Source of the DNA: an uncultured Desulfobacteraceae bacterium
GTDB lineage: Bacteria; Desulfobacterota; Desulfobacteria; Desulfobacterales; Desulfobacteraceae
Assembly: GCA_913041495.1 (NCBI GenBank)
Contig: CAJWHT010000017.1
Location: 1-49,565 of the forward strand
Direction of reading: 5' to 3'
Length of the DNA stretch: 49,565 nt
Below are positions 24,541 to 49,124 of the stretch, piece after piece. Within the stretch, counting starts at the first letter, position 1. Each line of letters starts with the position of its first letter. Both the position numbers and the translations under genes were made by a program. Under the pieces are notes generated by a model. It was not told the DNA's origin. It saw nothing but the letters and a program-made list of their open reading frames with translations, and did no database searches.

Positions 24541-24589
24541 AGTGCTTACTTAACGGCAAATGACGTTAGGCAGATATGAATACCCTATC

Positions 24590-26266
<1,677 letters not shown>

Positions 26267-45867: not shown

Positions 45868-46839
45868 TTATGAGTTTAGTGTCACCAGGCAAGCCGCAAG
45901 CCGTTCGCCTGGAAATTTAACGGTTTGTTTCAACGTCTCCCCGGAAAGAATGTTGAGCTTTATCTGTCCTGACAAGGCGCAGCAATCAATGCTTTCCGCA
46001 GGTCTGCTTCCGGTGGGTGCGTTGCTTGAAAGGGGGGGGTCAAGGATCTCACTTAGGTCCTGTTGCCATCTCTCCTTGCAGGCACAACCACTTTCATGCA
46101 CTTTTATGGATTCAATGTCAAGCCCATTTATCACTTCATCCGCACAGGTTTCCAAATAATCCATCACGGCCGGACTCGTAGTCACCAACAAAGGACTCTC
46201 ATGGGTTTGCGCCGTTATCCCGGCCTGTTCCGCCACGGCAAACCAGGCTGAAATCCGCTCTCCGGTCATGGTCTCTCCCGGGTCCCTTCCGGCCCCTGCC
46301 GGGGAGGAGGCCTCATGGGGTGGTTCCGCTTCTGGCATCTCCCCTTTCAGTTCGGCGAACAGCGCTGCGTTACCGGCATCCAACGCGTTGAGTTCCTGCC
46401 GGATGGCATCGTTGTCCCGGTCCCAGATTTCAGCGAGCTTCAAAAACAATAGCGGGTCCTTTTGCTTTGGCTCATTCTTTTGAGCGCCTCCTGCCATGCC
46501 ACGGCGTATCTGGGACTGTATACTTGACGGGCCGGTGTCGTCCCTGAAATAAACAGACTCGCGCATCAGGGCCTTCAGGTTCCGTTCGTTGCCCCGGTGA
46601 ATCTTGGCCCACGCCAGGTACTCTTGAACCCGAAGTTCCGCGCCCTGCAACACATCCTCGGGAGGTGATAAAGGCAACAGCGCTTTTTGATCATCCCCCA
46701 CTTGGTCATTTAGGTGCTCACGGACCGCCGGAACATCCTGGCCCAGACTTAACACCCGAGTCTGTTGAAAAAAAGCGGTCACGGCCTTAGCCTGCGCCGT
46801 ATCCATATAGGTAAACGGGAAAAAACAAATGGTTCTCAT
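45868..46839 (-). CDS. Unknown Cys-containing protein coupled to the CysK-CysRS fusion
   Basis: I do not recognise this 323-residue protein. It starts MRTICFFPFTYMD, is soluble and helical in the first half, has a Pro/Gly/Ala/Glu-rich disordered stretch (about 165-195) and, in the C-terminal third, two Cys groups: ESGCACKERW (CxC) and SIDCCALSG (CC). Its ATG shares one base with the TAA of the gene before it (TAATG), so translation is coupled. The coupling suggests a link to cysteine or sulfur metabolism, but that is inference only. Confidence 0.7.
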   Translation of the reverse strand: MRTICFFPFTYMDTAQAKAVTAFFQQTRVLSLGQDVPAVREHLNDQVGDDQKALLPLSPPEDVLQGAELRVQEYLAWAKIHRGNERNLKALMRESVYFRDDTGPSSIQSQIRRGMAGGAQKNEPKQKDPLLFLKLAEIWDRDNDAIRQELNALDAGNAALFAELKGEMPEAEPPHEASSPAGAGRDPGETMTGERISAWFAVAEQAGITAQTHESPLLVTTSPAVMDYLETCADEVINGLDIESIKVHESGCACKERWQQDLSEILDPPLSSNAPTGSRPAESIDCCALSGQIKLNILSGETLKQTVKFPGERLAACLVTLNS

Positions 46840-49124
46840 TATAGTTCTACCTTCTTATCATGAACGGAAACCCCCATGGCTTCGAGCTTGTCTCTTATCT
46901 CGTCCGCCGTCCGGAAGTCCCGTTTCTGCCGGGCGGCTTCTCGTTCGTTTATGAGAGCCTGCACCGCATTGGAATATTCCATTTTTTTACTGAAATCAAA
47001 TATGTTCAACACCAGGTCCACATCCTGGAAACACGCCCGCAGCCGGGCGGCGCCATTGGGCCCGATCCGGTTCTGGCTGACCAGGCGATTGATCTTTTTG
47101 ACACTGGAGAGAAGCCCGGATACCAGATGGGGCACCTTAAGGTCATCACTCATGGCCGAGGCAACCGCCTGACGGATATCATAGGCGGTCTGTTCGATCT
47201 CCTCAGCATCAGAACTGCCGGTCACGGCATCCAGTGTATCGATGCACCTATTGATCTTTGCCAGGGTGAACCTTGCATCCTCAAGATTTTTCCTGGAGAG
47301 GATGAGGGGCTTGCGATAATGGGCCGACATCAGCCAGAAACGGATGGTTTTCTCTTCCCAGCCCAAGGCCGTCAGACGGTCAAGGGTCAGGTCTTCGATA
47401 CGCCCACCCCCAAGGGACCCGTCATAGCGGACCGGATGACAGTGCACCCAGACATTGGCCAGATCTTCACCCGTGGCCGCCTTTGCAATGGCAACCTCAT
47501 TCTCGTGGTGGGGAAACATGAGTTCCCGGCTTCCGGTGTGGATGTCAAAGCTGTTCCCCAGATACTTCATGGAGATCGCTGCACACTGGAGGTGGAGAGA
47601 CGGCCTGACGTTCCCCCACTCGGTTCGAATGCCCACCCCCTGTTTCAGCTCGGAGAGGCGCACCCGCTTGAGCAATGTAAAATCCCTGGGGTTCTGCTTC
47701 TCGTACTCGTCCAGATCAACGGTGGCCCCAAGCCGGATCTTTTCCAGGTCAACGTTGGACAGCAGGCCGTAATCGTTTAGGCTGGACAGGTCAAAGTAAA
47801 CGGAGTGCAGCTTTTCATAGGCATGTTCCTTGTTGACAAGGGTTCTTGCAAGATCCGTCATTTCTGAAAAATGGGCAGAGACTTTAGGCAGAGACTGGGC
47901 CTTTCGCATGCCCAAAGCGCCCAGATCGGCCTTAAACGCATCCAGGTAAGGCTGGGTGAATGCATCAAGGGACAATCCGGCTTCCCGTGCCCCGTCAATG
48001 GTTTTATCGTCATAATCCGTGATATTGATCACGTGGTTGACCTTGAACTGCTGGTATTCCAGGTACCGGATTAAAAGATCCGTAAAGGCGTAACGTCTGA
48101 ACTGGCCGATGTGCAGGCGCCTATGAATGGTGGGCCCGCAGGTATAGACACCGATACCGGCTTCTCCGGCAGGGGTGAACGCCTCTTTTTGCCGGGACAG
48201 CGAATTGTACAAATTCAAATGAAGGGTCTTTTTAACGGAAAAAAGCTCCGTGGACAGATACCGTTCACCGGAATCGGGCAGGATCACCACCACGGTTCCC
48301 TTCCCGATCCGTCTGGCCTCTTCTATGGCCACCGCCATGGCGGCACCGGAACTCATGCCTACAAAGAGACCTTCTTCCCGGGCCAGTTGGCGCGCCGTAT
48401 CAAAGGCGGTATCGTCATCAATGTGGATACAGTCATCCAGAATGGACCTGTCGAATATTTCAGGGGTATAGGACTCCTTCATGTTCTTGAGACCCTGAAT
48501 CTTATGGCCCAGGTAAGGTTCGGCGCAGATAATCCGGATCTGTTTGTTCTGCTCTTTTAGGAACCTGGACAAGCCCATCAGGGTGCCTGATGTGCCGACG
48601 GTGGCCACCACGGATGACACCGTCCCGTCTGTCTGTGACATGATTTCAGGGCCGGTGGTGTGGTAGTGGGCCATCCAGTTGGCCTCGTTGTTGTACTGAT
48701 CCGTCAAAAAATACCGGTCCGGGTATTCCCGGGCAAGCCGGTAGGCTTCTTCAATGGCCCCGTCCGATCCCAGGTGTCTGGGGGTCAGGATGATATCCGC
48801 CCCCCTGGCCCGCAGAATCCGCTTTCTTTCTTCGCTGGCGTTCTCCGCCATGGTCAACGCAATGCGGTAGCCCTTTACCGCGCAGATCATGGCCAGACCG
48901 ATACCCGTGTTTCCAGAGGTGGCTTCGATCACCGTCTTTTCCGGGGTCAGTTCCCCTGAGGCCTCTGCCCGGTTGATCATGAACAGGGCAGCCCTGTCCT
49001 TTATGGAACCGCCCGGATTCATATACTCAAGCTTGGCAAGAATCTTTACCCCGGGCACAGGGTTTAGTTTTCGGATCTCCACAAGGGGGGTGTTGCCGAT
49101 TGAGTCGATGATGGAGTGGGTCAT
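46839..49124 (-). CDS. Cysteine synthase fused to a degenerate cysteinyl-tRNA synthetase
   Basis: One 761-residue frame. Residues 1-300 are a PLP-dependent cysteine synthase: K42 (NPGGSIKDR) is the PLP lysine and TSGNTG (69-74) the substrate loop. Residues 318-761 align with class I CysRS: YTCGPTIHRRLHIGQ, NITDYDDK, PHHENE, and the C-terminal helical part. The four zinc ligands seem kept (C329, C514, H539, E543). But the HIGH box is HIGQ (338-341), and at the KMSKS place RYDGSLGGG (566-574) has lost both lysines. It may not charge tRNA. AAAGGA precedes the ATG. Function of the second half is open; a canonical cysS is not in the window. Confidence 0.85.
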   Translation of the reverse strand: MTHSIIDSIGNTPLVEIRKLNPVPGVKILAKLEYMNPGGSIKDRAALFMINRAEASGELTPEKTVIEATSGNTGIGLAMICAVKGYRIALTMAENASEERKRILRARGADIILTPRHLGSDGAIEEAYRLAREYPDRYFLTDQYNNEANWMAHYHTTGPEIMSQTDGTVSSVVATVGTSGTLMGLSRFLKEQNKQIRIICAEPYLGHKIQGLKNMKESYTPEIFDRSILDDCIHIDDDTAFDTARQLAREEGLFVGMSSGAAMAVAIEEARRIGKGTVVVILPDSGERYLSTELFSVKKTLHLNLYNSLSRQKEAFTPAGEAGIGVYTCGPTIHRRLHIGQFRRYAFTDLLIRYLEYQQFKVNHVINITDYDDKTIDGAREAGLSLDAFTQPYLDAFKADLGALGMRKAQSLPKVSAHFSEMTDLARTLVNKEHAYEKLHSVYFDLSSLNDYGLLSNVDLEKIRLGATVDLDEYEKQNPRDFTLLKRVRLSELKQGVGIRTEWGNVRPSLHLQCAAISMKYLGNSFDIHTGSRELMFPHHENEVAIAKAATGEDLANVWVHCHPVRYDGSLGGGRIEDLTLDRLTALGWEEKTIRFWLMSAHYRKPLILSRKNLEDARFTLAKINRCIDTLDAVTGSSDAEEIEQTAYDIRQAVASAMSDDLKVPHLVSGLLSSVKKINRLVSQNRIGPNGAARLRACFQDVDLVLNIFDFSKKMEYSNAVQALINEREAARQKRDFRTADEIRDKLEAMGVSVHDKKVEL

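What the first reader, a model, noticed from the sequence alone, without database searches (positions are those of the whole stretch)
46839..49124. Cysteine synthase fused to a CysRS that keeps zinc ligands but lost KMSKS
Seen: CysK domain then CysRS-like domain in one frame. C329, C514, H539 and E543 match the zinc site that recognises the cysteine thiol. HIGH is HIGQ and KMSKS is RYDGS, so both KMSKS lysines are gone. Known: KMSKS lysines stabilise the transition state of aminoacyl adenylation. Inferred: this half may bind the cysteine made by the first half as a sensor, carrier or regulator, or do other chemistry (for example on persulfide), instead of charging tRNA.
Basis: partly seen in the sequence, partly recalled or inferred. 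Interest (0 to 1): 0.85.

Follow-up and report, generated by a model that had tools for sequence, protein, structure and literature searches.

The report
Cysteine-making enzyme fused to tRNA reader
A cysteine-making enzyme of a group of mostly sulfur-cycling bacteria carries, as its second half, a worn-down copy of the enzyme that loads cysteine onto its tRNA; the loading site has decayed while the part that reads the tRNA has not, so the pair may let the cell tie cysteine production to the state of its cysteine tRNA.

Summary
ORF 46839-49124 (minus strand, 761 aa) is CysK/CysM (1-296) fused to a CysRS-like domain (303-758). The genome has a separate cysS (583 bits, KMSKS intact). The fusion is conserved: 36 of 40 genomes of the relatives set, 115 of 297 of the phylum sample (own included); one clade in each half; under purifying selection. 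In 75 of 80 fusion genomes a separate cysS match of 513 bits or more coexists.

Zinc is only part of it. Among 96 fusions H-x-G-[HN] remains in 3, KMS[KR]S in 15, all four zinc ligands in 62. The C-terminal anticodon-binding part does not erode: D661, R728, R732, D741, R744, D756 are present in 95 of 95 rows; canonical-invariant positions survive at 7 of 8 there against 23 of 70 in the catalytic part.

Best reading (0.4): a non-charging, tRNA-Cys-reading regulatory domain on a cysteine synthase, like Gcn2 or HisZ. tRNA binding is untested. Five searches found no paper on it.

The parts
46839..49124 (-). Whole fusion gene, 761 aa (ATG at 49124, stop 46839-46841)
48237..49124 (-). Cysteine synthase (CysK/CysM) half, residues 1-296
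   Evidence: TIGR01136 over its cut-off, PF00291; K42, S70-G71-N72-T73, Q143, G177-T178, G180-T181 in 96 of 96 fusions
47265..48218 (-). CysRS-like catalytic and connective part, residues 303-620
   Evidence: PF01406 at 317-617; 23 of 70 canonical-invariant positions kept across the family
46842..47264 (-). CysRS-like C-terminal part, residues 621-761; holds D661, R728, R732, D741, R744, D756, the same in 95 of 95 rows
46851..46973 (-). CysS_C, Pfam's cysteinyl-tRNA ligase anticodon binding domain, residues 718-758
   Evidence: PF23493, 36.8 bits, cut-off 23
48102..48113 (-). Degenerate HIGH motif, HIGQ, residues 338-341
47400..47429 (-). Degenerate KMSKS region, residues 566-575
48138..48140 (-). 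Zinc ligand C329 (E. coli C28)
47583..47585 (-). Zinc ligand C514 (E. coli C209)
47508..47510 (-). Zinc ligand H539 (E. coli H234)
47496..47498 (-). Zinc ligand E543 (E. coli E238)
45868..46839 (-). Adjacent gene of unknown family (323 aa, FPFTY near its N terminus) sharing one base with the fusion gene; a frequent neighbour, not shown to be a partner

Best explanation
It is a protein made by one old fusion of a CysM-like cysteine synthase with a duplicated CysRS. The first half most likely still makes cysteine. The second half does not serve as the cell's main CysRS and in the window's lineage probably cannot make cysteinyl-adenylate. It is kept because its C-terminal anticodon-binding part still grips tRNA-Cys. 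Proposed mechanism: the domain docks tRNA-Cys; the eroded catalytic pocket (in this lineage with its zinc ligands) feels whether the acceptor end is free or carries cysteine; that state is passed through the short link to the cysteine synthase and raises or lowers its activity. Shown here: architecture, single origin, coexistence with a separate cysS, selection, the pattern of loss and retention. Inferred: tRNA binding, non-charging, coupling to cysteine synthesis and its direction.
For: Separate cysS in the own genome and in 75 of 80 fusion genomes at 513 bits or more. Fusion in 36 of 40 genomes of the relatives set and 115 of 297 of the phylum sample, own included. Each half is one clade among the rows used, SH-aLRT 100 (83 of 96 fusions) and 97 (42 fusions). 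At E 1e-84 no genome of 148 holds both the fusion and the related standalone gene. Median dN/dS 0.076 CysK half, 0.096 catalytic part, 0.193 C-terminal part, 171 pairs of 19 same-genus rows. H-x-G-[HN] in 3 of 96 fusions against 51 of 51 canonicals. The six C-terminal positions are unchanged in all four catalytic classes, including the 27 rows with neither the full zinc set nor KM[SA]; 7 of 8 against 23 of 70 canonical-invariant positions kept (Fisher p 0.004, positions not independent). Precedents: HisZ, a HisRS paralogue without adenylation that regulates HisG (PMC9437257 and PMC9734150, passages); Gcn2, whose HisRS-related domain binds uncharged tRNA (PMC4335047, start of abstract in a search listing).
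Against: That the six residues touch the anticodon is recalled from the E. coli CysRS-tRNA complex (1U0B); the two papers I looked for are not held. They could be kept for folding. An anticodon domain can persist in a regulator: Geobacteraceae HisZ proteins keep one (PMC2923632, passages). The C-terminal part is the fastest-evolving of the three in the genus (dN/dS 0.193), and the tail that carries W458 in E. coli is missing in the window's lineage. Fifteen fusions keep KMS[KR]S and 20 keep both the zinc set and a KM[SA] core, so some may still be active enzymes. Three of 40 genomes of the relatives set, all drafts, have no fusion.
Confidence: 0.4

Rival explanations
1. HisZ-like end-product sensor: the zinc pocket binds free cysteine and feedback-regulates the fused cysteine synthase; tRNA is not involved.
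For: All four zinc ligands kept in 33 of 36 fusions of the relatives set and 62 of 96 overall; HisZ does this for histidine (PMC9734150, passages).
Against: 34 of 96 fusions have lost at least one zinc ligand, among them all sampled members of families f59, f105 and f62, which lack both zinc cysteines, yet keep the domain; it does not explain the unbroken anticodon-domain residues.
Confidence: 0.2
2. Vestigial or structural domain: it holds the oligomer or fold of the cysteine synthase and senses nothing.
For: Catalytic residues erode along several lineages; three of 40 genomes of the relatives set do without the fusion.
Against: About 460 residues kept at dN/dS near 0.1-0.2; charged C-terminal residues the same in 95 of 95 rows.
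Confidence: 0.18
3. A second, weak or specialised CysRS that still charges tRNA-Cys, fed by the cysteine made next door.
For: Zinc ligands and anticodon domain kept in the window protein; 20 of 96 fusions keep both CCHE and a KM[SA] core; KMSKS-lysine mutants of E. coli CysRS kept protein-synthesis potential (PMC5660078, passages).
Against: Window protein lacks HIGH and both KMSKS lysines; the canonical residues W485, G506 and Q546 (window numbering) are in none of 95 fusions, R468 and W499 in 2%; a separate cysS is present.
Confidence: 0.12
4. An MshC-like ligase that activates cysteine and joins it to a small molecule or protein.
For: MshC is a CysRS paralogue (PMC9437257, passages); the zinc ligands are kept here.
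Against: TIGR03447 145 bits against a cut-off of 485; the solved MshC-type chains match only up to profile position 332 of 459, that is without the C-terminal part kept here; ATP motifs lost.
Confidence: 0.05
5. Cysteine persulfide synthase activity in the CysRS half.
For: Activity reported for E. coli CysRS and mammalian CARS2 (PMC5660078, passages).
Against: Of the four lysines named there only K73 has a lysine in the window protein; over 96 fusions K73 is K in 57 and K266 in 48, and lysine is not among the five commonest residues at K76 or K269.
Confidence: 0.05

Closest known systems
HisZ (HisRS paralogue, regulatory subunit of HisG)
   Same: aaRS paralogue without adenylation motifs, tied to a biosynthetic enzyme of the same amino acid, true synthetase elsewhere in the genome
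   Different: Separate subunit, usually without the anticodon domain (Geobacteraceae keep one); here fused, with anticodon-domain residues unchanged
Gcn2 HisRS-like domain
   Same: aaRS-derived domain fused to an effector and read by tRNA (if the model holds)
   Different: Eukaryotic kinase effector; here a metabolic enzyme; tRNA binding untested
Canonical bacterial CysRS (TIGR00435)
   Same: Full domain plan, zinc ligands in this lineage, anticodon domain
   Different: HIGH and KMSKS lost, many canonical-invariant catalytic residues changed, fused to CysK
MshC (mycothiol cysteine ligase)
   Same: CysRS paralogue with a cysteine pocket
   Different: Solved MshC-type chains do not match the C-terminal part; this protein keeps it and lacks the ATP motifs
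CysRS* of Desulfobacterales (for selC* tRNA-Cys)
   Same: Extra CysRS paralogue in a related bacterial group
   Different: CysRS* lacks the anticodon domain and charges (PMC9437257, PMC7609411, passages); this one shows the opposite pattern
Standalone CysM-like cysteine synthase of fusion-less genomes of the phylum
   Same: Nearest relatives of the first half
   Different: No CysRS half

Membership tests
Cysteine synthase (CysK/CysM) | TIGR01136 score over cut-off; PLP lysine and substrate loop | tested here: met
   367 bits against 344; K42 and SGNT in 96 of 96; the roles of these residues are recalled
Cysteine synthase (CysK/CysM) | Makes cysteine from O-acetylserine or phosphoserine | not testable with these tools
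   no assay
Canonical CysRS | TIGR00435 score over 340 bits | tested here: not met
   330 and 328 for the window; many sister fusions do pass
Canonical CysRS | HIGH motif | tested here: not met
   HIGQ in window; H-x-G-[HN] in 3 of 96 fusions, 51 of 51 canonicals
Canonical CysRS | KMSKS motif | tested here: not met
   no lysine in window; KMS[KR]S in 15 of 96
Canonical CysRS | Zinc ligands C, C, H, E | tested here: met
   all four in window; 62 of 96 in the family
Canonical CysRS | Anticodon-binding domain | tested here: met
   PF23493 36.8 bits, cut-off 23; six residues in 95 of 95
Canonical CysRS | Charges tRNA-Cys | not testable with these tools
   no assay
MshC | TIGR03447 over 485 bits | tested here: not met
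   145 bits
MshC | No anticodon domain | tested here: not met
   domain present
CysRS* (selC* system) | Lacks anticodon domain | tested here: not met
   domain present
CysRS* (selC* system) | Next to selC* and selB* | not tested
   neighbours were clustered but not scanned for selB or selC
HisZ-type regulator (works like) | aaRS paralogue, adenylation motifs lost, true synthetase elsewhere | tested here: met
   by sequence only
HisZ-type regulator (works like) | Amino acid feedback through the paralogue | not testable with these tools
   no assay
Gcn2-type tRNA sensor (works like) | Binds uncharged tRNA | not testable with these tools
   only residue conservation
CysRS-type persulfide synthase | KIIK and KMSK lysines | tested here: not met
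   only K73 of the four has a lysine in the window protein

The most novel reading that the evidence does not exclude
A cysteine synthase that reads tRNA-Cys directly: a bacterial, single-protein counterpart of Gcn2 in which the charging state of one tRNA sets the rate of making its own amino acid, without ribosome, riboswitch or transcription factor. A bolder form not excluded: the synthase half acts on an amino acid carried by the docked tRNA.
Probability: 0.3. Interest if true: 0.87.

Novelty: new variant of a known kind. Interest (0 to 1): 0.62.

Why it matters
aaRS paralogues are known to be reused as regulators, but the cases named here are a separate subunit (HisZ) or a eukaryotic kinase (Gcn2). 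This family is a natural series in which one can watch a synthetase lose HIGH, KMSKS and zinc ligands while its anticodon-domain residues stay fixed. If the tRNA model is right, it is direct control of a metabolic enzyme by a tRNA. It also warns annotators: many sister proteins pass the CysRS cut-off and could be called cysteine-tRNA ligases although the genome has another cysS.

Tried and rejected
SepRS-dependent route on tRNA-Cys (fused CysK as a Sep-to-Cys converter): rejected for this group, 0 of 40 genomes have a SepRS match over the cut-off; there were hits of 38 bits or less in 39 of 40, mostly at model positions 172-341, which I take for background from a related synthetase; none in the own genome.

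A dedicated second tRNA-Cys: one tRNA-Cys (GCA) was seen in the 26 loci scanned; the genome search gave 32 tRNA matches, 30 with loci, and two were not looked at, so this is not exhaustive.

The adjacent FPFTY-type gene as an obligate partner: relatives lie next to the fusion on the same strand in 22 of the 78 loci with flank and 34 of 40 genomes of the relatives set have a match, but so do G021 and, weakly (E 3.8e-4), G037, which lack the fusion. No Pfam or NCBIfam family over its cut-off for the proteins scanned; fast-evolving; no plasmid match. Left open.

Plasmids: 1 of 1135 records with a match covers 80% of the query, in two pieces that are separate frames in a Clostridia record. Absence outside the phylum is therefore not shown.

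Literature: five searches aimed at a CysK-CysRS fusion or CysRS paralogue in this group showed no such paper; of the 8 papers listed I opened passages of one (PMC2922099), and the single papers (PMC9437257, passages; listing only). Passages of PMC8762117, PMC7609411, PMC9976931 and PMC11580382 mention none. The library holds only open-licence papers, so this is no proof of novelty. Searches were on anticodon recognition, HisZ and CysRS*; one found nothing.

Rows dropped: 13 near-identical same-genus fusions left out of the CysRS tree (83 of 96 used), about half of the canonicals thinned there; every second fusion left out of the CysK tree (42 used); L232, whose C terminus is missing, has gaps in the C-terminal counts (95 of 96 rows).
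Full report
What is there. The frame at 46839-49124 is on the minus strand and encodes 761 aa. It is a cysteine synthase (TIGR01136, 367 bits) followed after about six residues by a CysRS-like domain (TIGR00435, 328-330 bits; PF01406; CysS_C). The CysK residues that I recall as catalytic are intact in 96 of 96 fusions.

Not the cell's only CysRS. The same genome has a cysS on another contig (583 bits, full length, KMSKS intact). Of 80 fusion-bearing genomes of the phylum sample, 75 have a separate match of 513 bits or more. The other five were followed up: G144 has a full-length 448-bit CysRS with KMAKS; G079 has two neighbouring pieces in different frames; G062 has a 100-position fragment; G174 has a 417-aa CysRS with KMSKS whose match stops at position 384 of 466; G044 (79% complete) shows none, while its family member G081 has one at 522 bits. 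The 80 were chosen from the 115.

Spread and origin. A fusion in one frame was found in 36 of 40 genomes of the relatives set (own included), split by contig ends in one (G028), absent in three drafts (G021, G022, G037). In the phylum sample it is in 115 of 297 (own included; counted from the table, with G053, whose frame is short at the C terminus, and without G105 and G152, whose matches stop early; G105 stops at a contig end). Named carriers are metagenome assemblies labelled Desulfobacula, Desulforapulum, Desulfocapsa and Desulfobulbus, among others. The CysRS halves of 83 fusions are one clade apart from the canonicals (SH-aLRT 100). The CysK halves of 42 fusions are one clade (97) next to standalone CysM-like enzymes of fusion-less genomes, with 85 for the join. 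In a sample of 148, 60 genomes (own included; G105 and G152 among them) had a fusion-type match and 31 a standalone one at E 1e-84 or better; none had both, and 57 had neither. At looser cut-offs fusion genomes hold other, more distant cysteine synthases, the own genome one at 41% identity. The simplest story is one fusion event, inherited. Both trees are short searches, good for these broad groups and not for fine order.

Selection. Over 171 pairs of 19 same-genus sequences the median dN/dS is 0.076 (CysK half), 0.096 (CysRS catalytic part) and 0.193 (C-terminal part). The second half is maintained, the C-terminal part least strictly as a whole. Synonymous change is high (medians 0.60-0.74; 22 of 171 pairs without a usable ratio in the C-terminal part), so the ratios are rough.

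What decays and what does not. Among 96 unique fusions, H-x-G-[HN] remains in 3 (51 of 51 canonicals), KMS[KR]S in 15, the four zinc ligands in 62; 20 keep the zinc set and a KM[SA] core, 27 have neither. On the tree of 83 the KM[SA] state needs at least 8 changes and the CCHE state at least 9. Of 70 positions invariant (98% or more of 51) in canonical CysRS within 303-620, 23 are kept at 95% or more; the canonical residues W485, G506 and Q546 (window numbering) are in none of 95 fusions, so also not in the KMSRS members. In the C-terminal part 7 of 8 are kept (Fisher p 0.004; positions are not independent and the C-terminal number is small). D661, R728, R732, D741, R744 and D756 are the same in 95 of 95 rows, whatever the state of the catalytic site. 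They align with E. coli D349, R423, R427, D436, position 439 and D451; W432 aligns with an aromatic in 95 of 95. Pfam calls the end of this region the anticodon-binding domain; that these residues contact the anticodon is my recall of the 1U0B complex, not checked here.

Reading. A domain that loses its chemistry but keeps the residues of its ancestor's anticodon domain is best explained as a tRNA-Cys reader. Fused to a cysteine synthase, the simplest use is to match cysteine supply to tRNA-Cys charging. HisZ and Gcn2 are the precedents. The opposite pattern is seen in MshC and in CysRS*, which keep chemistry without the anticodon domain. Against over-reading: Geobacteraceae HisZ proteins keep an anticodon domain (PMC2923632, passages), conservation may be structural, and the window's lineage lacks the tail that carries W458 in E. 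coli. KMSKS lysines may matter less than assumed (PMC5660078, passages).

Context. Among 78 loci with flank, the FPFTY-type gene is beside the fusion in 22; genes that look to me (by recall, no family search) like lptD, tmk and surE recur in 16, 16 and 11. Most neighbours were not scanned against families, so nothing is claimed about sulfur or selenium genes nearby.

Verdict. Observation confirmed; interpretation partly supported; a conserved, apparently undescribed CysRS-derived domain on a cysteine synthase, most likely a regulator that reads tRNA-Cys. The novelty claim rests on five searches of an open-licence library.

Noticed in passing
45868-46839 (minus): Unknown 323-aa gene sharing one base with the fusion gene; relatives beside the fusion in 22 of 78 loci, same strand in all 22; F7, P8, D140 and R195 invariant in 16 aligned rows.
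   Followed up: partly
L237:2005-4188 (plus), L238:1845-4013 (minus): A different extra CysRS (genomes G059, G097, family f43) followed by a glycosyltransferase family 2 domain in one frame, in genomes that also hold a standard cysS and the CysK fusion.
   Followed up: no
L240, L241, L242: Extra CysRS of 417, 415 and 463 aa whose match ends near window residue 709, on their own branch; L240 has no CysS_C hit. Perhaps the CysRS* of Desulfobacterales.
   Followed up: partly
L243:1687-2940 (plus): In genome G174 the only CysRS with KMSKS that was found stops at position 384 of the 466-position model, while that genome's fusion keeps the C-terminal part.
   Followed up: partly
24560-26239 (plus) and 24590-26233 (minus): Two long open frames (559 and 547 aa) on opposite strands over almost the same bases.
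   Followed up: no
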